From positions 10,720,183 to 10,784,182 of the forward strand of contig OY987238.1 of assembly GCA_963920705.1 (NCBI GenBank): a stretch of 64,000 nucleotides of DNA. The letters run 5' to 3'. Positions 17,591 through 63,175 of this stretch are shown in pieces (the first letter of the stretch is position 1; each line of letters starts with the position of its first letter). The notes beneath the pieces were generated by a model. It had not been told where the DNA came from. It searched no databases and worked only from the letters and a program-made list of their open reading frames with translations. The stretch is from Odiellus spinosus. Its lineage: Eukaryota > Arthropoda > Arachnida > Opiliones > Phalangiidae. Both the position numbers and the translations under genes were made by a program.

Positions 17591-17599
17591 TATTTTCCG

Positions 17600-19849: not shown

Positions 19850-21257
19850 TTTTCGATGAAAACAATTTTTTCTAAGAGCAGTTTTCTAAACGAGAGAAAC
19901 CAGAGCCGGATTAAGAAGTTTAGTTGTAACTGATGGCGAAACTATATGGAGCCGAGTGTGTAGACAGTCCGTTTGCGATTTGATTTGAGCTTGAACCTTT
20001 TGGAGAAAAGTCTACTGTATTTAGTGCTTCTGCTACACGAGAAAGTTTATTTTCTGCTTAGGTTTTTAGATTGTTCTTTGTTCTTTTTTTGTTATAGAAA
20101 AGCCATAAACTGCAGCTGACATTTTGGGGGCGGTCAACTTGCCTCCCATGATTCAACCAAACTTTTTAAAGTCCACATGCAGAAAGTCAAAACATAGTAT
20201 TTCCATTCAGTACCATTCTTGTGCGCACATTTAAAGCTTCGAGATTTGTCGTTTTAGAAATGTTTTGAAATCTAATTTTTCATATAACGTCGTCATTATA
20301 AGTATGGCGCATGCGCCACTAATAATTAACTTATTAAGACGATGCCAATATCGAGCTGTTTCTTATTTAGAATATTTCAAAGGGTCAAACTCAATTCTGG
20401 CCTAAATTTAAATCCTGGAAGCCGAGACTTGTCACAGTGGGAACCGCCTTGGATTAAAATGACAAATGATAAAATCGTATTTCGAGGCTCTTTAGGTGCT
20501 GATTGCGACACTAATAATTATCTTATTAAGACGATCCTAATGTCGAGTTGTTCCTTATTTAGTTGTTTAAAAGCAACATTTTTGGACAAATTATTTAGCA
20601 GTCATGTAGTCTTGATAGAATTGGTGGGAAAATCGAAGAGTATATAACCATAGTTCTTTCTATCTAGAGTTGACAACATGACTTTTTAGCTAGACTTACT
20701 GTTATATCTTAAAATTTTTGATTAAGAGATAGAGAGGGAGATGCTTTGCACGTTCTGTCAGCTAAAGTTGGAATACACTGTAGATTTTTTTTTCCATGAT
20801 CGTATAGGAGCTTAAGATCGTTTTCTTTTGGTGGTATTTCTTTTCTCTTTCGGGGCGTAACTCGGCTGCGGCGTCCCTAAACTCCATCTCTTTCTTTAAA
20901 ACGACGTTAATAAAATAACGCGCCTGGTTTCGCTTTGATCCCAACGCTCTGTTTTACGAGTTTACTTAAAATATCGAATAATCGGTAACGTACATAAAAA
21001 GCCTCCGGAATCTGGTGATCTTTTTTTTTTTTTTTTTTAGTGTAACAACCTCGTAATTCCAACGTTTTCTTGAAAATTCTTATACCTCGATCCTGAAATC
21101 GCTAGGGATTACTTCTCTATAAGAGTTACAACAAGTTAAGTTTTTCCCAATTATGAGCATTCTTCTTGTTATGAAAAATTGAAATTAGTAGTAGCATTTT
21201 CACAAAGATCGTTGAAAAACGTTTCAAAACATTATCGTTTTTTAAATCTGTTTTACA
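19850..21257. other. Non-coding stretch with one poly-T tract
   Basis: No supported gene; a 101-codon + frame at 20342-20647 has no recognisable domain. Two related words lie in this frame and its leader: CTAATAATTA.CTTATTAAGACGAT at about 20320 and 20510. They suggest a diverged duplication of roughly 190 bp. A run of 18 T lies at 21021-21038. Confidence 0.4.
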
Positions 21258-27079: not shown

Positions 27080-28766
27080 TTAGAAAAGGTATACGGTAAC
27101 CTATGGAACATTTATAAAATTGCATTGCTTTCGAATATAGATCGCAATTTAGATCTGTAAACGTAAGAAATCGTGTCGGGAATTCTATTTTTCATAAAAG
27201 TTATATTTGAATTCCTCTTCTCGTTTTTTCTCTGGTATTCCAGGCTTGGTCTCGCCACGGCTGGATTGAACCGTGGGTTACATGAGAGAATGAGAGCCGA
27301 ATAAGAATCCCATTCTTTATTGAAAATATATCCCCTTTCCTACAAACAAGATCGCTCAAACAACTTCAAAACCCTTGAAACAATTCGGTTATATTCCAAA
27401 ACAAAATTTAAGGCTTATGCTTTCTTAAACTATGAAGTACAGCAGACTGTAATTTATTTATTTTTGTAAGTTTGTTTAAATAATTAAGTATTTCTTTTGG
27501 CAATGTTTTAGTATTTTTTGGCCTTTTCAAGAAGAAATTATATTTCTAACGTAAAACTTCATTCATAAAGCGTTAGAGATGAACAAATTGTTTTGTAAAT
27601 CTTGTAATTATTGAGGAAATCGCAAAATTTATTTTCATATTTGAAATTTTGAAATCCTCCCGTTTCTGTTTCGTATGAGATTCCCTGTGACACAAAAATA
27701 TTTTAACACCCTTGTATTAAAATCTTTAGGAATCTTATAAAGTTTTTTGTGTGAAGGGAAACAATAAAGGAAATGCAAAAACCGCGGGAACCCTCGGGTT
27801 TCTTTTTATCACATTTGGTTATTTTGACAGAAGCGCGCGGAACGCTCAACTGAAGCAGAGAGATAGTAAATTCTTTTGTACCGAATGACATAGAAAAAAT
27901 TCTTATACCTTTTTATAAAATATTCGGTTTATATAGTAAACATATAAACACAAACTTGAGTTTTAACAATGTAACCTATAACACAGCTTTCTCCTCTAGC
28001 CTTGCAGGGTGAATAAGTTTTATTAAAGTTCGTAATTAATTCCTTCTTAGGACTAAGAAGGGAGTTTGTGAAAGTTTTCTCACCCACGCATTTTAAACTT
28101 CAACGTGGTAGTTACTACGTTAGTTGGGACATAAGTTTCCTTTAAAAGAGGCATCATTCTATGGAAATTTAGGTGTTTTTCAAGGTTGAAACTATAAGGG
28201 TATTGTATGGTCTAGTTTCTCATTGTCCTCGGGAGAGTAAAATAGGGTTAAGGTTTACAAGCAAGGAGTATGTAACGAACAAGAGTCGTATTTTAATTTT
28301 TTTTCGTGTGGTGGCGCTACTTGGAGGGTTAATTTTTAATACAGAAAGCCAAATTTGATTTCAGTCCCTGTTTCAATATACTATCTCTTTATCAAAGACG
28401 ATTTTTATAGAACCCTGAGTTTATCGAGACTGTATATGTCATTGAGTAAGAAATCTCTTTCTCTACAAAGAGAAGTTAAGGACACTGCACCCTTGCAAAG
28501 TACTGGTAGTTTTTGGTCCCTGTTCTTGTTAAAAGTATAGCTGTAGACGGATTACCAGAAGAAGTAGGATGTTGAAGAAAAATTCTCTTTTCCGAAACCC
28601 TTGTTAAATTCTAGTTTACGTTCTCAGCACGTTTCAATTCTTACGGTTCCTCTTATCTCTTTGCTTTTGTTTCTAATAGAGTCTACCTTTATTCCGACTG
28701 CAAACTTGAATTGAATTAAAACAATACTATTCTTCATGAATTGTTTGCAATTCAACGAAAACTAGA
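27080..28766. other. Non-coding stretch
   Basis: No gene supported; frames of about 60 codons at 27703, 28173 and 28355 have no recognisable domain. Confidence 0.4.
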
Positions 28767-28786
28767 GCGGATTAATATATATTGTT
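28767..28786 (-). repeat. Dispersed ATTAATCCGC motif, minus-strand copy
   Basis: GCGGATTAATATATATTGTT is the reverse complement of the motif (AACAATATATATTAATCCGC). Reading on the minus strand, ATTGCAAAC lies about 16 bases downstream (28743-28751), matching the second block. Confidence 0.65.
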
Positions 28787-28789
28787 GAA

Positions 28790-31447
28790 ACTCGTAGAAA
28801 AAAAAGTAGATTTTTGAAAGGGTATGTATATGTAGGCTTAATGTTTTTTCTTCCGCGAATGGTGCACGGGGTTTATCAGGTCTTAAAGCCGAACTATAGA
28901 CGACTGTTTAGTTTCAGGTATCGCTAGTTACTTCGAGCCATAGGTGGAGTAAGTGGTTTTCTTATGGACTCCTTTTCTAAAAGATGGAGAGGTTGTATCC
29001 AATATGAACTTATCTAGAAAAATACCATTGAGACAAAATTCGTGTTACTGAGTTAGGATTTCTCAGTTATATCCAGAGAGGTATAGATTAAAGCTTGCAG
29101 CCTAGCTGTCTTTACTCAAAACCGTTGTCAAGGCGTAAAAATATAGACTTGTATACAGATAAGCTTGGACATGGCTTTGTTACTTGGTTTTTGATTGTAA
29201 TATGGAAGAGGCTTAAGTATTCTAAAGCAGCTATATTTTATGCCAGATTTTATTATCTACGCAGACTATTTTAATTTTTTAAGTATAAAGCTTGGTGTAT
29301 TGTAGTTATTGGCTTTATTTTAAACGTTAGTTTAACACAAATTAATTTCAACAAGTTCTATAAGAGTCTCGAGGTTTCCGGTAGAATATACTATTTTGTT
29401 TTAAAGAATCTGAGATTTTAAAGTTGAAGATCCTTCTACATAGTACCAAAGAACTCATCCAAACCAAAATTTTAAAATTTTAGGAATATATTTAAGCCAG
29501 CCATAATCTAATCTGTGCAATAGGTCTAACTCTATCTTAAGAAAAAAACGCGCTTTTTTTTGCACGTTGAATCTAGTCTTAGAATCCCCAAAAAAATATT
29601 TGAATATTTTTTTTTTTTTATTGAATATTTTTTTTACTCGGAATATTTAGAATCACTTTGACCTATTTGTAAAAGAGTTGGGAGTTGAGAAGAGGAATTG
29701 ATTTCTAGAGCAATTTTTAAAGGGGAAGTTTAAGTTGCACTTATATTTTCTGACATAAATTCAACTGTGAAAATTGTTGTAAACTATAAAAATAATTTGT
29801 ACGATTACTTTTCCATTACATGATTTGGAAGTTTAAGAACTAACATGACGTGGTAGACATATTTGTAAAATTACCTTAAATTTGGTAATATATGTCACTG
29901 TACCTTTAAGAAAAAACAACTCTTTATTTTTCCCTATACGCTTTAGCTTCAATGGAAAAAAAAGTAAAAAAAATTAAGAAATAACTTTACCTTTTTCGAT
30001 TTTTATTGATCGAGTTCAATTTGATATGTTTCCAGAGGTCCATTTTCCATTATTCTTAATCTCGTTCCAATTTAAAAGTCTACCCTCCTTCGAAGGAAAA
30101 ACGGTAAAAACTACATATGGGGTAGGTTGAAGGGGATGAAAACCATTTTATTCTAACACGAATGAAGCAAAGTCTTAAAAAAAAAAAAATAGGAAAGAAA
30201 TTAATGAGAGAAGCATCAATTACTCCCGTTAGATAAAAAGAAATAAGAGAAACCAGTTAGAAACCAGATACCGTGAACGCGACCATCCCTGGATTTCTTG
30301 TCTGTCTCTTAGATTAGAAGCAATTGAATAAAAGGCTGGGATGTAAAGACTTGATTAAAGGTAAACTATCACATGATTTTGGGAAACATTATAATATTAC
30401 TGTAGGGCTGTGGTATGGCCAAAGATTAGTAGGCCACGAAGGCTATAGACTATTATTTCAATTCGGACCCCAATAAATTAACTTATAGGACCCAGAAAGG
30501 CAAGCCCATAATTATAGGTAAAGCCAAGCATAATTTTATTTGTTATACACTTGAGTTGACATGAGTTCAACTTGTGAACTCTGTTCAGCCTTAGCAATAC
30601 AATGAGTTCAAAAATTGTGCACAATAGTGTTCTCAAGTGTCTGCTTCCTCGCGCAGTAGGTCAATTCCTATACCTTAATGGCAGATTTCGAAAATGTTTC
30701 AGAAGGCCCATAATTGGAAATTTGTGATCCATTATCAAAAATAAGGGGGTCATAACTCAGTGGTGGTCGGCATAAATCTTGGGTAGCCACTGTGGTATAG
30801 AACATTTGGGGATCTAAAATATGTTTCACCAAAAATCGACTTTTCTATATCCGAATTTCATCCATTTGATGACGTCATAGTATTGTCGTTCGATATATAT
30901 CGGTACTATAAGCTTTTGTTTTTCGTTTATGCTTAAGCCTAGGCTGCACATTAACCAAAGTTAGGTTATGCATTCCTTTGCACAATGGAATTAGTTTTGC
31001 AATTTTGCCCAGTTAGTGTTACTATTCCTTTACAAAGGTCTTTTTTTTCTCAGTTTGGACTCTATTGCTTCTAAGTTAGTGGACGATTATAGTAAAAGTC
31101 AGTTCGAGTTTACACAGCACGAATGTATTAGGTTCCCATAGTTATCTAAGTAATTAAAAGTATTTGGAATATAATGCAGAATAACCTTGTATTCGCTGAA
31201 AACTGATGATTGATACTGGTTGGATTGTGTTTTTTGTTACCCCGGATATATAAATTCATTCTAAACGACTCAACTAGGGGGTTCAATTACTTAATGGGAA
31301 CAGTCAAGGAAAATTAATTGTTTTGAATTTATTTATCGTACGGTGTCTTATAAATTATTTTAAATTGTTGTAATAGAATTACCTACGGTAATCTATTTTC
31401 TATGGTGATTTGATATTTTTGTCTTTGTTTGTATAATTTACATTCAA
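28790..31447. other. Long non-coding stretch
   Basis: No gene or family member recognised in 2.6 kb. It includes T- and A-rich runs near 29610-29620 and 30178-30190. Confidence 0.4.
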
Positions 31448-31789: not shown

Positions 31790-33792
31790 TCTAGGAAGAA
31801 AAAAATGTTAAACTCCATTTATCACGACAAAGTTTATTGTGCTCGAGTCTTGAAAATACCTTTTGTTCCAACGGATAATATAGTGATATGTCTCGTATTT
31901 AAACAAATATACTAATTAATCTTCTCCCTGCGGGGTGTATTATACAACATAGACTTGTATGGAATTGCAGGAACTTCATTTTAAAATAAGCCTTATTCGA
32001 AACCGAAGTCTGTTTCATGTTTGTATAAAAGTATAGAAACCTTTGCACAAACCAAAGTATATCTAAAGTACGCCCATATTTAAATTAGTTTTAAAACAAA
32101 GCAAAACCAGATTTAAATTTAAAGGGTGTCAAAAGCATTTTATCGTTCCGCCCACTGAAAGATTTTCACCACGCAGCGGAACACGAAGACAAATATCGTT
32201 TAAAAATTAAAGGGAAACTGCTACAACAAAGCTAATGGTGTCAATTTTACTATTATTTACCGACTGGTAATACCAAGGGTGTGTAGAGGAGTGTGTTTCT
32301 TTCATTACAACTCTATGTATCTAATCAGAGAGAATATAAGCATGAGGAGGGTTTGTGGCGTTCTCCTACTTTAGGAACAACAGAAAGCGACGTGATTGGT
32401 CATAGAATTTTGTTCCATTACTTATTTTTACATGCAGCTGATTCTGGAAAAGAATATTATTTGATATTTCATTAAGTTTCGGTTTATATTTTCCCTTTAA
32501 GTTTTGAGGTCCGATAGTTTCGTGTATATACATATTTTTTTACGTATTCACGCTATGAAACGATTGTCCACGCTTCGAAGGTTTAACCAAATTAACATCG
32601 ACTCTAATTATTTTTGCCTTCACGATCATCCCAATCCTTCCTTTTCCTAATTCTTCCCGGAAGAATAAACATTTCAAGCTATCCCTTTTTAAAGTTCAAC
32701 TACAAGATTATCACGGATTTATGAAGAGTAAATTAACTGAACTTTATCTTGACATTGTGTATCTATCCGCCCTTCTTCCTGAACCAAAAAAATCGATGTA
32801 TGAGAGCAAAAGACATTTTAAGCCCCTTATGTTGGTCTTCTCAGTGCACACTGAAGCACTAAGGTTGGAACACTTGTACAGGTACACTTAATGAATAGTT
32901 TTGATCAGTGAACATTACAACCAAGGCTAGAGATAATTTTTGACATACAGAAACCTAGTTTTCCCTTAATATTGTTTAAATATTCAAAATTATTCAAGAA
33001 ACGAAATTAAATATTTTAAAAATTAATAAAATAACAAAAATTCCATACAAAACACATTCTTAAAGACTCGTGATACAGGCAGCCAATAAAATTCCTTTTC
33101 GATGAAGTTTAACGATAATAAAGATTCAATATCTATAGCTAGCATTGTCACCATCCCTTTATGTCAATAATTTTAAATTTATCTTGCACTTGGTCTTATT
33201 CAATTCTTATTCGTAACTGTTTGAGATTAGAGCACGCTCAAAGTTGCGTAACGTTTTATCTCGTGTAATTTTATTTATATGGAATTTAACTTCGTCCCTA
33301 CTTTTACCAAAACCTGATCGTCTTTCCTTTGTTATCTTTTCTTCTTTCGCGTTCTCATCCTCTACTTAGAACTCGGATATTTTTAAAGAAAAGTCTTCCG
33401 CGAAAATTCGTTTGCCGCCTAAACCCAATTAATATTCATGAGTTTGCGGGTGCTTCCGCTACTCAAAATTTTAATTCAATAACGCCTTTAAGGCAAGCGA
33501 GGCGTAGCGACGTGAAGAAGGGTGAAGAAAGGGATATAGGCTCCTCTTTTTAAATTGGCCGTGCCGATTTTTTGATCAAAGAAGATTTGAAGCTTATAAA
33601 GATCTAAGGGAGAACTCTGCAAACTGTACTACAGAGAATACCTTTTTGGGTATTATGGTATACCTTGGTTTCTTCGCTCTGTTTGTTTTTCGCAATAACA
33701 GAAGTCTATAAAATCTCACTTTGGGCGGGATCTCTTTTCAACTCGAGATAATCCATGAAACTTAAGAGTTTAATCTAGGACTATTAATGGAG
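31790..33792. other. Non-coding stretch
   Basis: No gene supported; a 74-codon frame at 33329-33553 has no recognisable domain. Confidence 0.4.
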
Positions 33793-35452: not shown

Positions 35453-35508
35453 AACATTGAGTATTAATCCGCTTCATTATTAACTGGTTTACAACATTGC
35501 TCGCGAAC
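35453..35508 (+). repeat. Dispersed composite motif, complete copy
   Basis: Three blocks are present: AACATTGAGTATTAATCCGC (35453-35472, 19 of 20 consensus positions), GTTTACAAC at 35487-35495 and GCGAAC at 35503-35508. The third block lies 31-36 bases after the motif end, the same offset as in the 43868 copy. Confidence 0.8.
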
Positions 35509-35994
35509 AAAGTGTATATATATAGAAAGACCAAAGGAAAGACTGATTTCTCTTAGCTGATGGCTATGATTCTCTTTTCTTAAAATTCGCCTCCCTCATC
35601 CGGCAATCATCTTGTATTTGTCCCGTTCTGAGCGTTCTCTGAACGAAACTGTAGGATATATGCCCCGAAGGGATTGGCGCAAATGTCCGAGTCATTCAAT
35701 TCTCAGCTCACGAAAAGTTGAAAAGCTTTTTAGGACTCGTTTAAACTCTCGATAGAAATTTGTCTCCGGGTTGCGAACTGTCAAGTCAAGTACTGATATC
35801 CAATCGGAAAAAAAAAAAAAAGTACGATCAAGAAAAAAAACATTCCTAAATATATTTCGAAACTATTATTTTGTAGCTTTTTGTCGTAATTGTCGATGTA
35901 GATAAGATTTAAAATTAATTTGAAATTTCGATTTCTAAAATATGGTACGTAAGCTTTCTCCGACAACATCTATTATTTTACAACTAAATTCGAA

Positions 35995-36215
35995 CCTAAT
36001 TTTCCAATTATTTTCAAAAAGTTTCTTAACCTCTTTTCAACCATTTTTCTACCTTTCCAAAAGATTTCCAGCCTTTATCCAATCTCCTAACCAATAACCA
36101 ATTTCAATTTTTTTCTGTAAAGATTTTCAACCTTTTCCCATTGTCTCAACCACTTAAAACTTTCTCAATCGAGTCAATCCTTTCACCAACCCTTTTCCAA
36201 CCTTTTTACGTACCT
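35995..36215 (-). repeat. Degenerate pyrimidine-rich repeat (CCAACCTTTTC words)
   Basis: Words such as TTTTCCAACCTTTTT, TTTCAACCATTTTT and CCTTTCACCAACCC recur irregularly. They are the complement of the GGTTGGAAAA words at 3725-4045, so the same decayed repeat probably lies here inverted. Confidence 0.5.
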
Positions 36216-36653
36216 ACTGTGAAAGCGGACTGATGAAGGTCTTAATTTCACCTACTCCATGCATTTCTTCCTTTTATAAATTTTTTAAAATATTACTGTA
36301 CCATGGATTCAAATTTTAGAAAATTCATAATAGAATCTTTTTATCAATAACATCTTTGTTTTTTAAAATCGTTAGAAAATCATGATAAAATAGCTTTTAA
36401 TTTAATGGTTTTAAGCTTTGATATAATGTCACATCTGGGTAAAACAAATTAATTCTACTTTACCATCTTGTCAATGATATTAATCCCGATTTTTCGCGAT
36501 GTCCCGATGTCGGTGTATAGAAAAAAAGGCTTCATCTTCCAAATGACCGTCTCGTTTTTCCCCAATGGGGACATCCCTATATAGGTCCTTTTCGTTTATA
36601 TCTAGAGCGAAAAGGGGTCAGATGTCCAAATGGGAAGAAAAAAAATATCCACT

Positions 36654-36674
36654 TTTTTTTTTTTTTTTTTTTTT
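36654..36674. repeat. Poly-T run of 21
   Basis: Uninterrupted T run. Shorter A runs occur near 36830-36845. Confidence 0.95.
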
Positions 36675-36679
36675 GACCC

Positions 36680-37099
36680 GTTGAACTATGGAGAAAAATT
36701 GGAGGTACTTTATTTTAGACGATAGGTCACTTAAAACTCTCAAGGCGATGGTTTATAGAAGACGAAAATACGAGAGATTTAACCTCCTCGGGGTTTAGTA
36801 AAACCAACGTACTTTGAAAAGACCCGATAAAAAAAAAAAAAAAAATAGAAAAAATGATGATTCAACCTTTTTGATCATTGTCCCCGATTTAAGATATAGA
36901 GCTTATATAAGCGGCTTAATCCTAGCCATTTGGGAAATCAGCTAACCAAGAACAAATTTTTGTAAGTCAAGAACACAGGGAAAGAGAATTGGGAGCGACA
37001 TGTTGCCAAGATTTAGTATGTCCAAATTACATCTTACATTTCATTTTTTAATTATACTCATTTTGATTAGAAAAGTCCTATAAGGTTGATTTTAATTAA
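36680..37099. other. Non-coding stretch
   Basis: Nothing recognised. TTAA at 37096-37099 is the left flank of the following element. Confidence 0.4.
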
Positions 37100-37393
37100 G
37101 CTACTATCACACTAGCATTTCTTAATCGATTTGAAACGGTAAAATCAAACCAATATTCAAATCGTCAGGAATCGTTTTAAGCCTCACATGTTCACACATT
37201 ATCTTTATAAATCGATTTATTGTAGCTTTACTTATCGGTTGTTGAAACATAATCGGTATGAAGCTGGTTCCCGAAGCAGTTTCGAGAAATCGAATCAAAT
37301 CGATTCGAGAACAGACAGTTTCCTGTTCACAATACTCCAGCGAATCGTTTTGAAACTGTTTAATTCGATTCCAAAGCCCAGTATGAACGCGGC
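37100..37393 (-). mobile_element. Family C inverted-repeat element with TTAA flanks
   Basis: This 294-bp copy lies between TTAA (37096-37099) and TTAA (37394-37397). Ends read GCTACTATCACACTAGCATT and AGTATGAACGCGGC, imperfect inverted complements with ACTAG and AATCGATTTGAAAC cores. It is homologous to 14318-14597 and 59423-59715 in the opposite orientation. TTAA duplications fit piggyBac- or Kolobok-type integration. The open frame at 37122-37421 lies almost wholly inside and is judged non-coding. Confidence 0.85.
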
Positions 37394-37511
37394 TTAAGTG
37401 TATTAACTGAATATTGAACAAGAATATAAAGTAGATTACTATTTACATTTTTACAATCGGTAAATAAAATTAAATTTTTTAACAAATTTTTTATTTTTCT
37501 TTTTTTTTTAG

Positions 37512-37587
37512 GAGAATACAGACTTTTAGTTCAATTATATCTCTGGATCAAACACTTTGAATTATGTGGATACGATATATCTCAGTG
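37512..37587 (+). CDS. Candidate internal exon 2, protein unknown
   Basis: A T-rich tract ending TTTTTTTTTAG precedes the segment and GTGAGT follows CAGTG. One phase is open: GA completing a codon, 24 codons, then TG left over. It reads EYRLLVQLYLWIKHFELC followed by GYDISQ. Its start phase matches the single base left by 3133-3213 (G+GA gives Gly). Both segments contain YLW in a similar hydrophobic setting, which could mean duplicated exons or chance. No family is recognised, and no convincing next exon was found; 45470-45541 and 55096-55118 were weak candidates. Confidence 0.35.
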
Positions 37588-37594
37588 GTGAGTC

Positions 37595-38306
37595 GCATTT
37601 TTAAATACTTTCTGTGAATGGTTATCGATTTCAAAATTGATATCGATTAATTAAATAATATAGACGTGAGAACAAATCTTGGGTAATATTAAGCTGGTAC
37701 ATTATATCATTTACCTACCATAATTATTTTGTTACCAATATTTTTGGTACAAACCATTTTGAAAAGAAATTCTTATCCTCCCCTTAAGAAATTTTTATAC
37801 AAACATTAATTAGAAGCATATGTCTTTGCTCCGTGAAAGATAGACTGACCGCGAAAGAAATTTCAATGCGTTGAAATTAAATACTTAATTACTACATTTC
37901 TAAGATATTTGTCAGCTAAGATTAAATATAATTAAATCTGATTGGTTTATTGGTTATTAATTGACATAACCAAATTAAACCTAAGTGGAAAATGAATTTT
38001 CATTTAAATTAGTTCAACCAATAATTCAACTTCTCATTTTGAGGTCTCGTCTTAAATAGAATTTGGTTAAAATATCGACATAAATTTATAGCTCAGTTCG
38101 CTATGCAATAGATGAATATTTAATATTTTAACTGTTCAAGCAAAATATAAAATGTACTTAAACCCACCCAACCCCTCCCCAAAAATTTGGATTGTGTTAA
38201 GCAAATATTAGGTAGATCCGGGCATACCTGGGCTTACGTTAGGCAAGTTTCTTGTCTTTCGGTTTTCACTTTTTTGGGATCATTAAAATTTATGACTTTA
38301 AGTTTT
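37595..38306. other. Non-coding stretch
   Basis: Nothing recognised apart from the donor at its start. Confidence 0.4.
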
Positions 38307-38505
38307 GATACATAATTAATAGATAAATGTTATTAACAAGAACAGGCGTTCATAAACGTCCTCTCACGTCAAACAGTGGTTAAAGTATCTAACAAAACCT
38401 CGTGTGTGTCTGTTATGTTCTGAGCATACGTGGTTTTGTTAGTTTCTTCTTTTGCCACTGTTTTCGCCGTTAGAGGACGCCTATGAAGGCCATTTTTTGT
38501 TAATA
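38307..38505. mobile_element. Family F palindromic element, well preserved
   Basis: AGGCGTTCATAAACGTCCTC, CAAACAGTGG and ATCTAACAAAACCTCGTG face GTGGTTTTGTTAG, GCCACTGTTTTCGCCGTTAG and AGGACGCCTATGAAGGCC. The outer AATTAATAGATAAATG matches the 33.8 kb copy. The two arms fold back over most of the element. Confidence 0.8.
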
Positions 38506-38509
38506 GTCC

Positions 38510-39508
38510 TAGCTACTTGAAGATTTTTATCAGTACTTCATATTTCCTTTAATTTCGAAACTGACTGCGTGTTGTTACAGTCTTGAGTGAAGTTACTTAA
38601 GTCTTCAGTTCTCCCAAATACCCAAACTGTAGCACATGTTATTGATAGGGTTTAAAAAAAGTATGTTTGAAAATAAATCAATTGAGGGCCCAAGAAGAAG
38701 AAGAGTGAAATGCGCGAACCAAGCCATTGCTTAAACCTTTTGTTTTTATTTTTATACACATATGCTTTGAAATAAGAAGGATGGTTTTGTGTAGAACTGA
38801 TGGGCCATTCCATTTTTTAACCAGACGTGTGTACGTTTACATCGTATTCACTGACTTAGAAGAAATGTCCCTGCCTTTCACTGAATTGCCTCTGAGATTT
38901 TAACTTATTCTAGTGAAAATATATCTTAAGTTCATATATTCAACTTCGAGAAGATAGCGGAGAGATGTTAGGGGAAGGATAAATATGGAGAGAAAGATAC
39001 CAAGATGAAGAACATAGAGATGGAGCTTAGTAATAATGCTTGCTATCTTATGACTTCTGGTTAAACTGACTGTGTTTTGAATTATTTTCAACTCGTATAC
39101 CGTAAAAGAAAGCATTGGCATACGATTTTAGTCCTAATGCTTTACCAATTTTCTTGATAGCTAGAACAATGCCTATATAACCTTTTTTATGTTCGGGCAT
39201 TCTAACAGGAGATAGTTGATACAAATATAGGGGAAAATGTGCTGGGAAAAATACAGTCAGTTTTCACTCCATGAAAAACCAACAAGGTTTAGTTTTTAGA
39301 AAGTTTAGTTCAGACTTAACTTGTAAAATTTTGTCTTAAAACAAGATGGGTCGTGAACCACGACAGTTACGCTCATTACGTCACAGTTTATAAATGGGCA
39401 ATTGCATACCCTATAGAATGTCTCCCTTAACTAGCCGGTATTGATATTTATTTGGGATCCTCAGAATGTTTACACTTATCAATTTAAAATTCAGGTTATA
39501 AACGCAAT
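38510..39508. other. Non-coding stretch
   Basis: No gene supported. ACGCAAT at 39502-39508 is the left target duplication of the next element. Confidence 0.4.
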
Positions 39509-39847
39509 CAGAAGCCGATGAAACCCTGCTTTGAAGTCTACTACTCCAATGTTCCATATAGCGTTCCTCTCTGTATGGGTAAAATTCCCAATTTTACGAG
39601 TTAGAAGGGGTCCTACTTCATCCCCCCTGTCTACGGAAAATTGGAAATTCTCTCTCTCCACAAACGACGACGTTTTTTTTGGACGAACTCCAAGGCTGCT
39701 AGAGATATTCTCTCGACGAGCTCCCGCTCCGAAAACATCTACCGTTAGGAGGCGTACGGATCGCGCCTTTTGAGAATAACCCATACAGAGAGGGGTAGAC
39801 AAGACCCGGGAGTAATAGACTTCAAAGGAGGGTTTCATCGGCTTCTG
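39509..39847 (-). mobile_element. Family B element with perfect 7-bp duplication, copy 2
   Basis: This 339-bp copy runs from CAGAAGCCGATGAAACCC to GGGTTTCATCGGCTTCTG. It is flanked by ACGCAAT on both sides (39502-39508, 39848-39854). The core is in the opposite orientation to the 24.9 and 46.9 kb copies. Copies are highly similar, so the family has been active relatively recently. Open frames on both strands inside it (39491-39853, 39531-39773) have no recognised domain. Confidence 0.95.
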
Positions 39848-39859
39848 ACGCAATTGGGA

Positions 39860-40480
39860 AAGCTATGGAAGAGAAAGAAATTATTTTGAATTGTTTGATA
39901 TACTCAAATAGGTTATATTTTCATTCATATCTTTTTTTTTTTCTATTACGCGAACTCTTTTTATTTAAATAGAAGTATATACAGGACGTTAATGAAGCTC
40001 AATATAATATTTGTTTGGAAAACCTATAAATGAACGGTTAGGTATAAATCTGGAAATGAAAGATATTTCAAAGAACAATTTGCTTGTGCGTTAACCCCCT
40101 AGAAAAATTGAGCTTATGATCCAATGAAAGATAATCTATGGGTTTCATAAGAGTTACCAAAATAATTCTAGAAATTGGCGAATCCGAACAAAACTTGATA
40201 TGGAAGAAAATAAAATTTTAAAGCTTTTAACTCTCGATCCCCTTTCGTTGGTTGTCGGTTTTTTGCGAAGCAAGAAAATTGTTTACGTTTCGAAACAACC
40301 AAGCGTGCCTGAGAAAAGAAAATAAGATTTTTTTTCCCCGCTTTTTCTTTTATTATTAGAAGTTTTCTATGCCCCAAGAGTGGTGATTTCGAAATGTTTT
40401 TCTGTAAAAAAGTGCTATCTAGAGACTACTGTTCGCCATCAATATACATGGAAAGACTACGTTTTTCTCCTATGTGATTT
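39860..40480. other. Non-coding stretch
   Basis: Nothing recognised. Confidence 0.4.
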
Positions 40481-40535
40481 AACATTGTTAATAAATCCGC
40501 ATTACCTTTCCATACATTACAAACTTCAAGCGAAC
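40481..40535 (+). repeat. Dispersed composite motif, diverged head but all three blocks
   Basis: AACATTGTTAATAAATCCGC (40481-40500) is a diverged first block. ATTACAAAC follows at 40516-40524 and GCGAAC at 40530-40535, within one base of the offsets in the 35453 and 43868 copies. Confidence 0.7.
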
Positions 40536-40754
40536 GAGGTTCTTTAGGACAAAAGGTCATCGTATATGTGTGTATAGGATTGACCCGTCCATCGCTTCAC
40601 CTTTTATATATATAGAATCATTCCTTATTCCTTCAAGTTTGTAGGAATAGCTTAGAGGAAACGCTGACTGCTTTATAGTGTTTTGAAGTAACGAAACCAT
40701 ACCACGCATCTGTCAGAGTATGTGCCGGTTTTTGCTTCCCTAGTAGTTGATCAG

Positions 40755-40796
40755 TTCGAACGGGGTCCCCGATTCCTCTTCGAACGGGGTCCCGAT
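40755..40796 (+). repeat. Two-unit 24-bp direct repeat
   Basis: TTCGAACGGGGTCCCCGAT at 40755 and TTCGAACGGGGTCCCGAT at 40779 are separated by TCCTC. This is a local duplication with one C deleted in the second unit. The surrounding 73-codon frame is not recognised. Confidence 0.9.
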
Positions 40797-41192
40797 ATAA
40801 ACTGGAGTCCAAAATCTTCGTACACATTTTTTAGAGATATCTCCGTGAAAATGGACAGTCGGGGGTACTCTACCATATTCCTCCTAGCTCCAAGTACGTT
40901 TCTCGCGTGGTGGGCGAAAGTTCTGAACCAAAAAAAAAAATGACATCCATAAATTTTAAGTATATATATATAGTATAGTTTCTATTTATTTCCTCTCGGA
41001 GTTAGTCTTAGTGTTTTTATCGGCAATTTCTTGAACAGTTGGGAGTTTGTGAGGTTGCGTTTCGGGTTTTTTTTTTTGTGTTAACACGCAATTTAGTGTG
41101 AGGTGAGAGGATGATAAATTGAAGAAGAGGAACCGCTTCATTCCTTATTTAACTTTTATACATGTATCAGAGGAAAGTTTAAGAGAGATTTT

Positions 41193-41212
41193 TACATTGT
41201 GTATCAATCCGC
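41193..41212 (+). repeat. Dispersed ATTAATCCGC motif, copy
   Basis: TACATTGTGTATCAATCCGC matches 18 of 20 consensus positions. It lies only 0.7 kb from the 40481 copy. No clear second or third block follows at the usual spacing. Confidence 0.7.
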
Positions 41213-41375
41213 TCAACATTTTCTGTTTCTGATTAATATTTTTTAAACAATTTACTGGATTGCAATTCTTGCTCTCGCCTTTTCTCTTTTATAAAACCGC
41301 AAAATATATTATAATCATATGTCATAGTCCTGGCGAATTAAAATTAACCAAATTTGATTAAAAAGGCTTACAGTA

Positions 41376-41450
41376 AAGCTCATAAGCATCCTCTAACAGT
41401 AAACAACATGTGCTTTTGCTAATTACTATTTTTACTATTACATATATCTC
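41376..41450. repeat. Diverged family F fragment
   Basis: GCTCATAAGCATCCTCTAAC followed by AGTAAACAACATGTGC is a weak match to the family F left arm. The right arm is unclear. Confidence 0.35.
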
Positions 41451-41469
41451 TCTAATATTTATCATTCAT

Positions 41470-43867
41470 TACCAATGAATATAATCAGAATACATGTTTT
41501 ACCGAATTGTTTAATTAACTAAAAAAATTAACGATAAATTTCTTTGAAAAATAAATCTCGTATCTCTGAAAGCCAATGCCTGGTAAATATTTAATTGCCA
41601 CTGATAATTTCGAAAGTATAATTAATCTTTTTGACCCTTAAGAGAAGCCCAACCATTTTTAACGGTATCCTAGTAAGCGGCTGGATTTGAGTGTATAGTC
41701 AGTTTCACCTCGAATTGATCGCACGTGCAACGATAGACTACTTGTTACCTTCAAGATATTATTAGCAAGAGTCATTACAGCCTATATCTTTATCAGTGCT
41801 GTCAATTAGAGGTGGAATTGCACTATAGTAGAACAATTTCTAACAAAGGATTAGCTCGGTGACGGTCTCATTCCCAAATGACTATACCAGAAGTTAGACA
41901 AAAAAACTTTTTCCATTTTCTTGACTTTTTTAATGTCCCTGAGAATGCTACGAGAATGCAGTAAGCGATCTAATTTCCCGGCTAGTTGCGTCTTAAAGGG
42001 AGTATAAACCAATTTGGAAAATCGTCTGCTACTTTAACGTGACGTCTTATTACCTAACGTAACCAGCTGATTGTGTTTTAGTACTTATTTAGGCATTATG
42101 TTTAAATTATGCCTTGGAATCCTTTCATGACTGTCATTTTTCGATTTGACGAATAGTTGTTAATATTCACAATTGCCAAAATGTTTTATGACGTTATTTT
42201 TAAGGATAATGTTACATAATTTGGTGGGTTGAACAAGTTGGGGAAGGCCAAAAAATTGGTGTAAAGTTACCCCAGGTCCCACGGTCAGGGGTGATTTAGT
42301 ACCAGCTTCCGACTTCACTGTCGTCTAGTGTGCCCCTTGCTTTAGTGTTCTTTCCTCTAAGATTCCGCGTCAATGTTTATAAAGTACGCCGCCATTTATA
42401 ATTGCCAAAAGGGTACTACAGGCTAGGCATTTTCTATCCTATTCCCAGGTCATTAAAAATAGATTTCTCTTCCATTCGGGCGCGAGAAACTAGAAACCGC
42501 GCCCTGACTCCTTTGCCCCGCGAGCTATATTAGGGCCGGTACGGTTTTCCTCGCAAGTAATTCGGAAATATCGCGTCCCCTAGCGAGTTATAAAATGTAT
42601 GACGTAAATAAGGTTACTCTTGATTACACTCCCAAAGTCTTTTCTTTTTTGCCTTTAGGCCTTTAAGCCTTCTTTAAAGGGTGGTTAAAAAAGATAGTAT
42701 TATTCTTTATCGACTCTTATACAAATACCTTAGAGGATAATGAATTATTCAAAGCACATAATGACGAACCACATTTTTTAAAGAAGAGACTCAATTCGGG
42801 CCTTGTCAAATTTATTTCGCGCCAAGCGACAGGAATGCAATCTTTTTAGAAATTGAAATATTCTCTATCCTTTTTTACGTACGCGTGACGTCGGTTTTAC
42901 TTTATATTTCATTATGCTCCAATAATATAACGAAAGAAATCGACTTATCCAATGAGGTACAAGCTTCTAAATTGATCAAAAATGATCGTAATGAAAAATT
43001 TATTTTAAAATAAGTCAAATGAATTCTTTGAGTTAGTTTTGTTTCTGGTTGAATTCATTCATGGTGTGGTTTCATAATTAACCTTTTTCACCCTCCCTTT
43101 TCGCCTTTTTCATGAAAACTAGAACTTCTTGATGAAGAAATTGTGTAAGCTCGCATATAATAAATTTGATGGGTTTATGCTCCCACCGGGAATAAATATA
43201 TATTTAAAAACAAGTATTTTTTCGCAAACACTTAGTATGATTATTATTTTATATGGCAATATAAGCAAAAAGATAATCTAACTTATTTCATGAATTTAGA
43301 TTATTTTTCGAGTACGTGCTCTTAGAAACAACCCGGGTTTTTATATCTTAATTAAGTTACAACCTTAAAAGGATCGTACTAAATTATCTTAAAAACTTGG
43401 AATCTAAATCCTAAGTTGTTAAAGGGATACTTAACTATGATTAATAGTTATTTGTTGTCCAGAAAGTCCTACGTTTCGTACGAAAATTATCGGTAGTTAC
43501 GTCCCAGAAATAAACTTTGTCAAGTAGCTAAAAACAAGATGGTTAAGTTCATAACAGACGCCACACCCCGTGAATCCAATTGTGACCACAGTCGCCGAGT
43601 TAAAAATATCCAAAAATCATTTTTACAAAGTATGTTTGTGGCCCAATTGAGAGACAAATCATTTCTGTTTGAAGTTTCTTAAGATCGCGACACCTAGAAG
43701 TACAAAATTACGAATTAAAACTAAAAATATAATCCATAGGTTTTGGAAAAAAAGGTGATAGTTAACTTTAAATCTATTCTACAATTTCTAATGCTTTTAC
43801 TCTGAAATTATTGATGTGAAATCATTAGACAGTCTATTTTCTACAGATTTTATACCCTATTTGATTT
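41470..43867. other. Long non-coding stretch
   Basis: No gene or repeat family member recognised in 2.4 kb. Slightly GC-richer at 42290-42570, without a usable frame. Confidence 0.4.
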
Positions 43868-43923
43868 AACATTATGTATTAATCCGCCTAAGTTATGAAT
43901 ATATTACAACACAGTGCGCGAAC
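43868..43923 (+). repeat. Dispersed composite motif, complete copy
   Basis: AACATTATGTATTAATCCGC (43868-43887, 19 of 20), ATTACAAC at 43903-43910 and GCGAAC at 43918-43923, at the same offsets as 35453-35508. Confidence 0.8.
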
Positions 43924-43929
43924 GACAAC

Positions 43930-44605
43930 ATATAGATTTCGCGTAAATTAAAATGTAGATCAAGATTATCTCTTAAATTAATGTTTAGAAGTCGGCTTCA
44001 TTCTTCCGGAACATTTTTCCAAACCAAATACTCTTTGGAAAGGATTGAGAGCCTATTTTAACGTCAAAATCTTTAGTTCAGGATGCCGTGCGCCCTTTGA
44101 ATCTCAAGAGAAAAGCTTGGGCTTTGGTAACGCTATATCGCGCTTACTTAAGCGTAAGACGGTCTTGACCATCGCATAGGGATGGTTATTAGAAAGACGG
44201 CGTGGCGAAAGAATTCATTCAGCGTGATTAATTGATGTCATCGTCACGGGGCTTTAGCTAATGACATATCTATTAAACATATAAGTATATATATGTATAT
44301 ATCTAATGGAATAACTCTTGAAATTAGGGAAAGTAGATTGCCACAACTATTATTAATTCGTATAAGGATTTAGGTAAGGTCTTATTCGCTTCAGCTTTAG
44401 ATAGTATGCAAACTACTATTGTATCGAAAAAGTTTTAAACCAAGGAAACTTCGTTTTCGGGGATATTACATTGACCAACAAGGGTGGATATTTTTTTTGT
44501 TAGTCTATCAGTTTAATTTCAACGTTTGCAGTCTTAACTACGAAAATAGTTCTTATACTGAGGCTCTCCACTTCGAAGCTAATTTCTCACATCTAAGACT
44601 ACTAA
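43930..44605. other. Non-coding stretch
   Basis: Nothing recognised; a 69-codon + frame (44419-44628) is unsupported. Confidence 0.4.
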
Positions 44606-45179: not shown

Positions 45180-46277
45180 GATATTGATTATTGAATTCCG
45201 CTTATATAATCAAATAGCCATCAATGGAGAAAAATGAAATAAATTAGGGAAAACTTCCGATAAATTCGTTTTTGATCAGTTTATATCGAGCTAGCTCGGC
45301 TATTCGAATTCTGGTTTCCATCTCTGATGGCCCTCATCGTCAAATATGGTCTCAAAATTAATATTCATAAGGACTTTCTTAATGCGCTTCGGGTTTTTTT
45401 TTTCTGAAACAATAAAAGATGGTAATTTTTAGTTCCCCCCCCCCCTCACTCAATCTCCCCTTTGATACTCTTCTAGGCCTTCTACTTCGGATCATTCTAT
45501 TGATTTGATTTTTCTTCATCCCTTAGCAATCTACTCTATGGGGTGAAGATTTGAAATATGGGTATATTTAATAGGGTATGACCTCGGAATTAGGTGAGCA
45601 AAACTCGAGATAATTAAGCCCCTTTTTCAATTAACGTTTTTTAAACTTTTATTATTATTTTTTATTTTTTTTTTTTTAATTTTCCAAGAGAAGCTTTTAT
45701 CAAATTCATTTAAATATCTGCTATGTTTCATTTTTGTTTTGGGGCAAAAACTTGATTCTTGGTCCAAAATCTTGATTGAAAACGCGACTTTACTGAACTT
45801 ATCCGCAAATTAATTTTTATTTTTCGATAGTTAAACATTTTCGCTGAGAAATTTCGTATATATTTAATACTATAATCATTTCAACAGGTTTGAACTAAAC
45901 TTATTCGTTGATTATTTTCACGTTGAAAATCTTTTGATTAGTCACAGTTCTCCTTTTAATTGAATATCAAAGTCTGCATCTTTTCCGATTTTTTTCCACG
46001 CCATTCAGAGTAATTTCCCAAATATTTAATATGCAAATAAGTATTTCTTAAAAACGTTAAATATATAAAGGTATATATAGTTAAACTTTAAATTCCAGTG
46101 GATTTCTTTTTTCAATGTATGTTGTATTAGGCCTATAGCTCTTTTAAAACTTCATATGGCGACTTAAAGCCACATTCTTTGCACTTACCCAATTAATTAT
46201 ACCCTGGAAAGTATGATGATTATATACTTTTATTCAATGGAAATTGGATTAAACTACTTTCTTCTTTATGAAGTATT
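45180..46277. other. Non-coding stretch
   Basis: It holds a C run at 45436-45445 and T runs near 45660. A possible acceptor at 45469 with a short open segment to 45541 is weak. Confidence 0.35.
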
Positions 46278-46297
46278 AACAAAGAAGATCAATCCGC
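46278..46297 (+). repeat. Weak copy of dispersed motif
   Basis: AACAAAGAAGATCAATCCGC keeps the AACA start and ATCAATCCGC end at the right spacing, but the middle is changed. Confidence 0.35.
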
Positions 46298-46299
46298 CT

Positions 46300-46909
46300 T
46301 AGATTATCCCATTACTAAGCAATCGTAATCTTTCTTATTCACCTAAAACGATCGTTATAATCAAAAAAAGGGTTGCCAAAAAAAAAGGGGGTGCAAGAGA
46401 TATGTAGGGCGGTGGTGTAGGAAAGCATCGTGATAGGCTAACTATTATATGTATAGCGTCAGCTGATGTTCTTAACGCGCAAGTCTTTCATCGATTATCG
46501 ATGTTCCAATGCCCAGTATGTTTTCCATCTTTTTTTCGCTTATATACAAGTTCCTTTAGTCACGGGCACTCTTTTGCATCTTTTAGGACTCTTCTTTGAT
46601 GGAGAGCTTAAAGCTTGATGCTCAGGAGTTGCATCAGCCATCATTTGATGAAGGATTACGAGTTACTATTGTGCCAGAACAATGTAACTTAGTATTTCCT
46701 CGATAATGGCAAGAACTAATTTATGAAAACTGGGAACTTACAAAAACGGATATTTTGTTAACATAAGTCTGCTATACTCAAAATGACTCGAAATAAAAGT
46801 GATTTATCCAAACGATATTAGATGAAAATAGTGACCAAAATTTTAAAAATAGGAACCAACACGAAAGTGGGAACCGTTTTTCAAAAGTTCTACCACTCTT
46901 TGGTATTTT
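46300..46909. other. Non-coding stretch
   Basis: Nothing recognised. Confidence 0.4.
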
Positions 46910-50190: not shown

Positions 50191-50648
50191 TATAGACCCA
50201 ATATATACTTGATTAGAGTTGCTTTCGCTCGGTCTTTTACGTGAAAGTACATGTACTTATCGTTAGTCTGATATTTTACTCGTTATACGTCATCAAGTTG
50301 GATAAAATTAAATTTATTTATTTTTGGAATTTTAATTTTGAAGTTTCTAAAAAACTCGTCAACATTTTGAAGTATTCTAAAAATTAGGTCATGGTTAAAA
50401 TTTTATCGAGTTTAAATTTAATTATTATCAATCTCTGTCTTCATATTTTTGCATCATCACTGGCTCAGACAGTTCTCAGTCTTTGTATTTGAATCCACCA
50501 GAGTAAGCAATATGGCCCTTATAAATCATGGTGTAGAAATATATGATTAGTAGGGTTGACCGTATTGAAAATTGCTATCAAACCTGTACGGTTCTTTGTC
50601 ACATGCACTTTAATTCTTGAGCAGTTTACATTATAGATCTGATTAGAG

Positions 50649-50668
50649 GCGGATTAATACATAGCGTT
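50649..50668 (-). repeat. Dispersed ATTAATCCGC motif, minus-strand copy
   Basis: GCGGATTAATACATAGCGTT is the reverse complement of AACGCTATGTATTAATCCGC (17 of 20). A TGTAAAC block lies downstream on the minus strand near 50624-50630. Confidence 0.65.
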
Positions 50669-50679
50669 AAACTATATAG

Positions 50680-51744
50680 GGATATAAATAGTTTTCTCAA
50701 ATTAATCTAGAACAAGAATACAGCTGGTCTACCTGCGAAAATAAAATAGCGATGATTGATTGCAAAAAAGCCTTTTGGTTCTTCTACTTTTGTGTGTCTA
50801 TCCCTGAGAAAGACACGCGTCTGTCAATAGATTTTTATCCGAAGATATTGCGGCCATTGGGTTTTTTTCTATCTTTAAAGAGAGGATGTTAAAGAAAATG
50901 AAAATTAATACCTCAATAAAATCTATATTTCGTTTTTGGAAAAGAGTCTAATTATGAAATAGAAATCATGTCTACGAAATTATAATGACGTCACTAGGAA
51001 TCCTCTTTAACAGCGTTTAGTAATATTTCGTCCTAATTTTACAAGTTAAGATCCAACACTTAATAGTGTGTTATTCAAAGGTGAATTTGCCTCGAACGAT
51101 TTTAGCCACTAAGATTATCGTTAAAGGGATAATGAAATCCGACATTGTTATTCCTAAGCCTAATTCACTCATAACTTATTTTCCGTTAAAAATGTATTTT
51201 TTTCACTTACTTGGAAAGTAGGCTTGTTTCCTCGTGACTTTCTATTTTCCCTTTAAGATGTGGGATCGCCTCTTAGTTCTATTATTCATCGTCCTTTTCC
51301 TGAACGTCAAGGTTTTTCTTTTTTCTCTTTTTTTCTTGGTACATGGCTATGGTTCCTATGAATAATGATCAATAAGCTAGTTCATCATAGACATCATTCA
51401 TGGTTTCCATGACGGGGAAAAGCAAATGATATATTTGTATTCTTTTTGTTAAATCTTTTGTTGGAAATTTGGGCCAAGTTTTTATCAATTTTAATTTAAT
51501 TTTATTATTAATTCAGAATTCATCGAATCTAAATGTATCGAAATATATCTACAATTTTCTCTAAATCCTCTTCTAGCTAGGATTATTTAGTTATCACAAT
51601 TTAGGAAGAGATAAGCAACAGAAATTGATGATCTAATGTAACTAACCAAATCTCGCGGATGTCTGCCGGGAGTTACAAAGTAGCCAAGGCTTAAGAAAAT
51701 AGAGAGAAACACTTAAAATAATTTATCGCGACATACCTTGAGTT
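50680..51744. other. Non-coding stretch
   Basis: Nothing recognised. Confidence 0.4.
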
Positions 51745-53656: not shown

Positions 53657-53674
53657 AACTGTGTATCAATCCGC
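53657..53674 (+). repeat. Dispersed ATTAATCCGC motif, copy with 2-base deletion
   Basis: AACTGTGTATCAATCCGC lacks two bases after AAC relative to the consensus but retains the 11-base core TATCAATCCGC. Confidence 0.6.
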
Positions 53675-53930
53675 CTTGTAGCCCATTTATTACGGTGAAA
53701 TAATATTGAATGTATTTATTAAATCAGTGTACCGTGTCCTCATCTACTTCTCTTAGTCAGATTTTAAAGGGATAATGAAGATTAGTAACACGTTATTTTC
53801 ATATATTTGAAGCGTTGAGTTCTAAAATTCCCTTAAATTTGAAAATTGGTAAATTACGTTGTAATTTATTGCGTAATTTATCGTCCCACGATAATTTCCA
53901 AAATTATTTCTATTTGAATATGTCCTTACA

Positions 53931-59719: not shown

Positions 59720-60090
59720 TCATTAATTACCGCGAAACCTTTGAATTTTAATGATCTTTTAACGCGTGACTTAACTTTCAAAATTGATTGAAAATATCTG
59801 GTTATTGATTTTAATAATTTTTGATATATTTTAATATTTAGCTTATATTATCCCTTTAACGGTATACTAAGCTGAGCCCTTCTATCTTTTTTATCTGGGC
59901 GTCCATATTTTTTTGCTTTTCCGGGAGTATAAGTGCCTTTTTGTAACGAGACCCTTGGGAGAGTGAGTGTCTGGAGCATTAGCCTCTCTCCCTCTATCCC
60001 ATGGTCCTAATAACGCTACAAAAGAGGCTCTCTAGCACTCTCTATATGATCCTGTACTACCCTAAACTACTTTCAATCCCTATGTAAATT
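59720..60090. other. Non-coding stretch
   Basis: Nothing recognised. Confidence 0.4.
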
Positions 60091-60146
60091 AACATTTTGT
60101 ATTAAACCGCATCAGTCCTCACTATTTTGTATCTCTGATAGCGAAT
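60091..60146 (+). repeat. Dispersed composite motif, copy with third block
   Basis: AACATTTTGTATTAAACCGC (18 of 20), followed at 60141-60146 by GCGAAT, offset 31-36 from the motif end as in the 35453 and 43868 copies. The second block is not clear. Confidence 0.65.
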
Positions 60147-62664: not shown

Positions 62665-63175
62665 AACAATGGGGAGTTTTATATTGTCGTTATCTCTGCG
62701 TCGAATCATGCCCTTTAAACCGATGATAAAATGTTTCAAATTAGGCTTAAGACTCCCGCGCTTTTAGTTGTTGTACTTTTGTTATATCAAAGAATGTATA
62801 GCTAAGGAATGGAAACTGTGATTAAACACACCTTTAGGGCTAGCGTTCCTTATCATTTCAGGTGAAAATCACGTGATAAAGGGGCGTGTCTTACGGTTTT
62901 TGGATTAGAAATTGAAACGATTTTGCGAAGGTATTGGGCCGAGAGCGTTTCCATTCTTTAGCTATATTTTCTTTGGTCAGATATTCTGCTGTTCCGAGTT
63001 AGAAATCTATAGAAAATCACTTGTTTTCGGACTGCATTCTGCCTTTAAGACGGACAGTGATATGAAACCCAAGCATTATACGTATTGTCAAATCAATGTG
63101 AAATGTAGTAAATGTTTAATACATGCTCCTGTATGCGATTAATTTGCCAAACTCCTTTATAACCTATGCGTTTTT
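62665..63175. other. Non-coding stretch
   Basis: A 76-codon + frame (62912-63142) is unrecognised. Confidence 0.35.

What the first reader, a model, noticed from the sequence alone, without database searches (positions are those of the whole stretch)
35453..43923. Dispersed 20-bp motif with two further blocks at fixed spacing, about a dozen copies in 64 kb
Seen: the core TAT(T/C)AATCCGC occurs unaltered at about 3000, 7247, 35462, 41202, 43877, 53664 and 63185 on + and 50649 on -. Diverged copies lie at 28767 (-), 40481, 46278 and 60091. The fuller consensus is AACATTGTGTATTAATCCGC. In the copies at 35453, 40481 and 43868 a TT(A/G)CAA(A)C block starts 15-16 bases later and GCGAAC 30-31 bases later; 60091 has GCGAAT at the same place, and 7238, 28767 and 2991 have the second block. 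The copies lie outside the transposon families, and the spacer sequences are not conserved. By chance an 11-mer of this composition should be nearly absent in 128 kb of strand. Inference: a spacing-constrained promoter-like element, for example of PSE type for small non-coding RNAs, or the relic core of an unknown short element.
Basis: partly seen in the sequence, partly recalled or inferred. Interest (0 to 1): 0.78.

Follow-up and report, generated by a model that had tools for sequence, protein, structure and literature searches.

The report
Ancient palindrome-ended repeat, not a promoter
The scattered 20-letter motif is the best-preserved middle of an old, roughly 120-letter, mini-transposon-like repeat that occurs many times in this arthropod-like genome; it does not look like a promoter of small-RNA genes, and apart from a puzzlingly well-kept centre it looks ordinary.

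Summary
TATYAATCCGC occurs 9 times in the window (0.06 expected); TGTATTAATCCGC occurs 859 times in the 443-Mb genome against 9 for the reversed control. The promoter reading does not hold. Copies extend into one repeat of about 121 bp. In 20 whole-element matches, identity falls to 0.39-0.40 just outside the element. A profile from those 20, none from the window, finds 16 window copies at E<0.01 and 0 in the reversed window. The 40 best-scoring genome places are only 79-90% identical to the consensus (40 scored of 2810 candidates), so the family looks old. The 110 bp before 11 U1, U2 and U6 genes hold no significant core match (P 0.19-0.99). I call it an extinct MITE-like family; target-site duplications and a transposase partner were not shown. 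Left over: the 23-bp centre is 90% conserved against 76-77% for its neighbours, and places on C1 are strongly clustered.

The parts
2944..3044 (+). element copy (core 2991-3010)
   Evidence: profile of 20 non-window copies, E 2.6e-11
   Evidence: E 7.8e-7
7191..7288 (+). element copy (core 7238-7257)
   Evidence: E 2.6e-12
   Evidence: E 9e-8
19863..19914 (-). possible decayed fragment of the element
   Evidence: E 0.0013
28724..28818 (-). element copy; 11-base core unaltered
   Evidence: E 1.6e-15; exact TATTAATCCGC
32751..32772 (+). weak core-only match
   Evidence: E 0.018; 3 mismatches in 20
   Evidence: E 4.4e-13
40420..40539 (+). element copy with diverged core
   Evidence: E 1e-12
41190..41222 (+). 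core-centred fragment
   Evidence: E 0.0001; exact TATCAATCCGC
43847..43933 (+). element copy
   Evidence: E 6.4e-11
44331..44423 (+). element copy with eroded core, found by flanks alone
   Evidence: flank-only profile E 0.00027; full profile E 7.6e-7
46219..46305 (+). element copy with diverged core
   Evidence: E 2.4e-5
50601..50722 (-). best-scoring element copy of the window, near full length
   Evidence: E 3.2e-17
53658..53677 (+). core-only match
   Evidence: E 0.038; exact TATCAATCCGC
60064..60130 (+). element copy with diverged core
   Evidence: E 1.8e-7
   Evidence: E 2.3e-9
63120..63241 (+). near full-length element copy with the consensus core
   Evidence: E 3.5e-13; exact 20-mer

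Best explanation
The motif is the centre of an old, apparently inactive, dispersed repeat of about 121 bp. The repeat has inverted-repeat arms of about 35 bp: TATATA..TGTTCAAGAACAGTTTGCAAAA on the left, and the reverse complement of nearly the same on the right. In anatomy and numbers it works like a MITE: a short element moved in the past by a transposase encoded elsewhere that recognised its arms, then decayed in place. The 'two further blocks at fixed spacing' are TTTGCAAAC and the GAAC end of the right arm, and their spacing is kept by common descent. Shown here: one common consensus, inverted arms, sharp edges, many copies, no young copy among those scored. Inferred: movement by a transposase acting in trans. 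The higher conservation of the 23-bp centre I attribute, without proof, to sequence that the lineage had to keep while it was still moving.
For: A common consensus is recovered from core-selected copies and works as a query: 2810 first-look candidates, 40 scored, 43 matches, of which 40 are 79-90% identical, one neighbouring copy is 75%, and two are arm-to-arm self-matches; two matches span positions 1-121. Edges: consensus identity about 0.39-0.40 outside and 0.64-0.90 inside. Inverted arms: 30 of 35 positions and the self-matches. The profile from 20 non-window copies finds 16 window copies against 0 in the reversed window, and 0 at E<0.05 in 7 U2/U6 loci (about 22 kb) not chosen on the element. 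A core-masked profile and an arm-only pattern (22 places against 0 control; 14 of 22 with a recognisable core) find the element with decayed cores. Strands 402 and 457. No Rfam family at gathering score in the window or at E up to 2 in four loci. No significant snRNA promoter match.
Against: No target-site duplication could be read by eye: the ends run into TA-rich sequence. No transposase with these arms was found, and none was searched for. Single-strand folding of 8 copies is no better than shuffled sequence (z from -1.41 to +0.92), as expected of decayed arms but no support. Uniform decay does not explain why the 23-bp centre is 0.902 conserved against 0.770 and 0.764 for its neighbours (site-level p 2.7e-4; the 20 copies are top local-alignment matches, a choice that favours the middle), or why 35 13-mer-selected copies keep TTTAACATT at 71-83% per site. 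A MITE family would be expected to keep its ends best; here the centre and the inner part of the right arm (0.895) are best.
Confidence: 0.78

Rival explanations
1. The core is now a host-used protein-binding site carried around by the repeat (exapted regulatory or chromatin site), so that it is kept under selection while the rest decays.
For: Core 0.902 against 0.77 and 0.76 for its neighbours in 20 copies not selected on the core alone; the excess is seen at A/T and at G/C sites. 86 exact 22-mers of the core survive against 22 exact 18-base arm patterns, with two arms per element. Places are concentrated regionally: 4 against 96 of the first 100 on C1, p 4e-34. In the long >3-kb family the element block is 87-94% identical where the 300 bp on either side are 35-88% and the next 300 bp 37-90%, in the six pairs without L086.
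Against: None of the 22 arm-selected places keeps the exact 13-mer (sequences), and only 14 of 22 have a recognisable core. L086 of the long family has a damaged element: 0.71-0.74 against 0.82-0.86 downstream in three of its four pairs; in the fourth, with L001, the element is 0.84 against 0.77. The right-arm palindrome is as well kept as the core (0.895). Regional clustering is also usual for old transposable elements (recalled).
Confidence: 0.13
2. A PSE-type (SNAPc-dependent) promoter of small non-coding RNA genes.
For: Length and apparent block spacing. Two of five U1 genes fetched have an element copy on the same strand within 350 bp upstream (both were fetched because exact 22-mers lay near them), and four of the 86 exact 22-mers lie within 120 kb around a U1 cluster on C11, all on the minus strand.
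Against: 11 of 11 snRNA upstream regions (5 U1, 3 U2, 3 U6; some of these may be pseudogenes) have no significant core match (P 0.19-0.99). The four C11 U1 genes share another proximal block at about -66 to -42, one of them only partly (by eye), near the ~40-60 bp upstream place known for the fly PSEA (PMC4227766, passages). The two U1-linked copies sit at different distances and match the element profile well beyond the core. Conserved sequence extends on both sides of the motif.
Confidence: 0.02
3. A palindrome-ended repeat that is not a DNA transposon, for example a dispersed satellite monomer or part of a longer unknown element such as the >3-kb family.
For: Three cores spaced 163-164 bp in tandem at C1:32858468-32858807. 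The long family carries the element inside it.
Against: The 20 whole-element copies aligned have sharp edges. Outside the element, L001 of the long family matches only L002 and one 35-bp stretch of the window among the loci compared, so the long family does not flank the other copies.
Confidence: 0.07

Closest known systems
MITEs (miniature inverted-repeat transposable elements), perhaps Tc1/mariner-type with TA target
   Same: Short, no room for a transposase gene, inverted-repeat arms, many copies on both strands; ends lie in TA-rich sequence. For comparison, a beetle mariner MITE of 496 bp with 24-bp arms is described in PMC6082228 (passages).
   Different: No target-site duplication and no related transposase shown; the asymmetric centre is better conserved than the arm ends.
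Proximal sequence element (PSE/PSEA) of snRNA genes
   Same: About 20 bp and apparent extra blocks downstream.
   Different: No significant match at 11 U1, U2 or U6 upstream regions; embedded in a two-sided repeat.
C. elegans-type piRNA gene motif (recalled, not tested)
   Same: Many short motif copies gathered in broad chromosome regions.
   Different: Here the motif is inside an inverted-repeat element with edges on both sides; no RNA data are available.

Membership tests
MITE | short element (under ~600 bp) with one genome-wide consensus and sharp edges | tested here: met
   about 121 bp; identity drops to 0.39-0.40 outside
MITE | terminal inverted repeats | tested here: met
   arms 30 of 35 identical at the best offset; self-matches on the opposite strand
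MITE | high copy number, dispersed | tested here: met
   859 exact core 13-mers, 2810 first-look candidates; very roughly 10^4 copies by a simple decay model
MITE | no coding capacity | tested here: met
   at 121 bp it is too short to hold a transposase gene; copies differ by many substitutions and gaps
MITE | target-site duplication | tested here: inconclusive
   ends merge with TA-rich sequence; none could be read by eye
MITE | autonomous transposon with matching arms | not tested
   no search for a transposase between such arms was made
PSE promoter | present about 40-60 bp upstream of the species' snRNA genes | tested here: not met
   0 of 11 upstream regions with a significant match
PSE promoter | transcription starts at a fixed distance downstream | not testable with these tools
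   no RNA data

The most novel reading that the evidence does not exclude
The 23-bp centre is a host protein-binding site kept by selection in thousands of dispersed copies of a dead repeat, in particular chromosome regions. It would be a transposon-delivered network of chromatin or regulatory sites, visible because the carrier has rotted away around it.
Probability: 0.12. Interest if true: 0.62.

Novelty: new member of a known kind. Interest (0 to 1): 0.22.

Why it matters
As an old MITE-like family it matters for repeat annotation of this genome: the motif would otherwise be mistaken for regulatory sequence. If the centre turns out to be under selection, it would be an example of a mobile element seeding thousands of binding sites, testable by comparing orthologous copies in a related species.

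Tried and rejected
Rejected: PSE promoter. Known RNA family (nothing). tRNA-related (nothing). Hairpin that folds as a single strand (no better than shuffled). Protein content of the three ORFs of at least 120 aa outside the tandem repeat (no Pfam family at E up to 1). Motif in print: a full-text search for TATTAATCCGC gave 17 papers; of the 10 listed (listing and abstract starts only, none opened; 7 not seen) 8 concern faecal-contamination markers, one Ewing sarcoma methylation and one a horse-virus assay, none of them this repeat. Arthropod MITE and snRNA-promoter papers: listings, passages of PMC6082228 and PMC4227766. Selection bias: the first conservation profile used core-selected copies and exaggerates the core; I therefore used flank-selected and whole-consensus-selected copies. 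The gapped flank identity (0.64) is weak evidence because the random control already reaches 0.52-0.53. Arm-pattern places: 8 of 22 have no core above the z>2 cut and are counted as misses; four of the 22 fit better as left-arm matches, one of them among the misses. The self-comparison was cut in the output; only its L001 and L002 rows were seen whole.

Full report
OBSERVATION. TATYAATCCGC occurs 9 times in the window, 7 on + and 2 on -, against 0.06 expected. The 20-mer AACATTGTGTATTAATCCGC with up to 3 mismatches occurs 11 times against 0.00. The window lies at C16:10720183-10784182 of a 443-Mb, 286-contig genome, in which TGTATTAATCCGC occurs 859 times (402 + and 457 -) against 9 for the reversed control. 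The 22-mer TTAACATTGTGTATTAATCCGC occurs 86 times against 0. So the motif is real and genome-wide.

EXTENT. Alignment of 41 copies (11 from the window, 30 loci) and of 64 copies shows a conserved stretch on both sides of the motif. The extended consensus is about TATATACTCTTGTTCAAGAACAGTTTGCAAAACTACTTTTATCCCTATGAGGTTTAACATTGTGTATTAATCCGCCTCAGCTTTCGCTAGTTTGCAAACTGTTCTTGAACAAAAGTATATA. Its two ends are reverse complements of each other: 30 of 35 positions at the best offset in the consensus of 20 copies, and positions 1-31 of the typed consensus hit the opposite strand of two of the same places. In 64 core-selected copies the best placement of TTTGCAAAC is 15 or 16 bases after the core in about 29.5 of 64, and of TCTTGAACAAA 26-28 after it in about 25 of 64. 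I take the spacing to be conserved because the copies descend from one element.

INDEPENDENT TEST. To avoid choosing copies by their core, I searched the genome with the whole 121-base consensus. There were 2810 first-look candidates; 40 were scored and gave 43 matches: 40 of 79-90% identity, one neighbouring copy of 75%, and two arm-to-arm self-matches; two matches span positions 1-121. In these 20 the consensus identity is about 0.39-0.40 outside the element and rises at both edges. A profile built from them, with no window copy in it, finds 16 copies in the window at E<0.01 and 18 at E<0.05, against 0 at E<0.01 (best 0.89) in the reversed window; 7 U2 and U6 loci of about 22 kb in all give 0 at E<0.05. 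The six others are at 4217, 12267, 19863, 32751, 44331 and 62255.

AGE AND NUMBER. No candidate among the 40 scored is young. A simple decay model through the counts gives very roughly 10^4 copies: 3,300 for a core identity of 0.90, about 24,000 for 0.77; the 22-mer count fits the low end of identity best (0.78, about 21,000). The implied arm identity is 0.66-0.73. This is a rough estimate; it treats sites and copies as alike.

THE CENTRE. In the 20 whole-element-selected copies the 23-bp core is 415 of 460 (0.902) identical to consensus; the left inner stretch is 308 of 400 (0.770), the right inner stretch 227 of 297 (0.764), the right palindrome TTTGCAAACT 179 of 200 (0.895), the left arm 321 of 434 (0.740) and the outer right arm 154 of 240 (0.642). 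The core exceeds the inner stretches plus the right palindrome at the level of sites (p 2.7e-4). These 20 are top local-alignment matches, a choice that itself favours the middle over the ends. Against strong constraint: of 22 places chosen by an exact arm pattern, 14 have a recognisable core, averaging 18.9 of 23, and none keeps the exact 13-mer (sequences). A core-masked profile also finds copies, outside those chosen by the core, with only 12-20 ungapped matches of 23 at E<0.01, some of them at chance level. I read the excess as constraint while the lineage was still moving, or weak later selection; the data do not separate these.

PROMOTER TEST. U6 (5 matches), U2 (46) and U1 (17) genes were found; all three searches scored only 42-48 of thousands of candidates, so the counts are lower bounds. 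The 110 bp upstream of 11 of them (5 U1, 3 U2, 3 U6; U6 with the start set by position; some may be pseudogenes) have best core matches of 10-13 of 23, none significant against shuffles (P from 0.19 to 0.99). Four U1 genes on C11 share another proximal block, by eye GGGCYATA..GTCA.TTTTA at about -66 to -42, one of them only partly; the U1 copy on C4 does not show it. Two of the five U1 genes were fetched because exact 22-mers lay near them; they carry elements at about -180 and -315 on the same strand, matching the profile over positions 35-109 and 38-94. The three others have none within the roughly 250-325 bases seen upstream. The density of 22-mers around the U1 cluster on C11 (4 of 86 in 120 kb) is notable but unexplained.

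PLACES. On C1, of the first 100 places listed (of 859 in the genome), 4 lie in 0-20 Mb and 96 in 20-32.9 Mb (binomial p 4e-34). Window density of exact 13-mers is 6 in 64 kb as entered (one search lists 5 exact ones: 2998, 7245, 43875, 50649 and 63183; so 5 is the right number and the Poisson values printed, for 6, are somewhat too small), against 0.12 expected from the genome mean and 0.48 from the dense part of C1. The 86 22-mers lie on C1-C8, C11-C16 and two small contigs, none on C9, C10, C17 or C18. Protein-kinase matches (148; 124 of 537 candidates scored) occur both inside and outside the element-rich regions, so these are not gene-free.

LONG FAMILY. Two copies near the start of C1 share their context, and a search with one of them showed a >3-kb family without a long reading frame that carries a whole element inside it. 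Its element block is better conserved (0.87-0.94) than its surroundings (300 bp on either side 0.35-0.88, the next 300 bp downstream 0.37-0.90) in the six pairs that leave out L086; L086 holds a damaged one (0.71-0.74 against 0.82-0.86 downstream in three pairs, 0.84 against 0.77 with L001).

CONCLUSION. An extinct MITE-like family; new as a family as far as I looked (one full-text search for the core), ordinary as a kind. The PSE reading is not supported. The well-kept centre and the regional clustering are the parts worth a second look.

Noticed in passing
L085-L088, L002 (C1:0.15 and 2.36 Mb, C18:9.4, C5:21.8, C2:34.06 Mb): A >3-kb multi-copy family with short tandem repeats, well-conserved blocks and no long reading frame, its C1:0.15 and C2:33-34 Mb copies near contig ends; it carries the small element inside it (contig lengths).
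   Followed up: partly
C11:16.1-21.5 Mb: 16 of 17 U1 matches lie on C11, with an unusual local density of exact element cores; two U1 genes have an element within 350 bp upstream on the same strand.
   Followed up: partly
C1:32858468-32858807: Three exact cores in tandem, 163-164 bp apart, suggesting a local tandem array that contains the element.
   Followed up: no
window 16779-17745: 23-bp tandem repeat array, perfect over much of its length and open in several frames on the minus strand.
   Followed up: no
window 24851-25188, 39506-39848, 46909-47246: A younger dispersed repeat of about 340 bp, 92-99% alike between aligned pieces of the copies.
   Followed up: no
C17:2.0-2.8 Mb: 41 of 46 U2 matches, all with the same score, many about 11.6 kb apart; C17 also holds several mitochondrial cox1-like stretches.
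   Followed up: no
C286 (L039, L040): Mitochondrial genome of 16,074 bp with cox1 and cox2 adjacent, and glutamine and isoleucine tRNA genes beside a leucine tRNA gene.
   Followed up: partly
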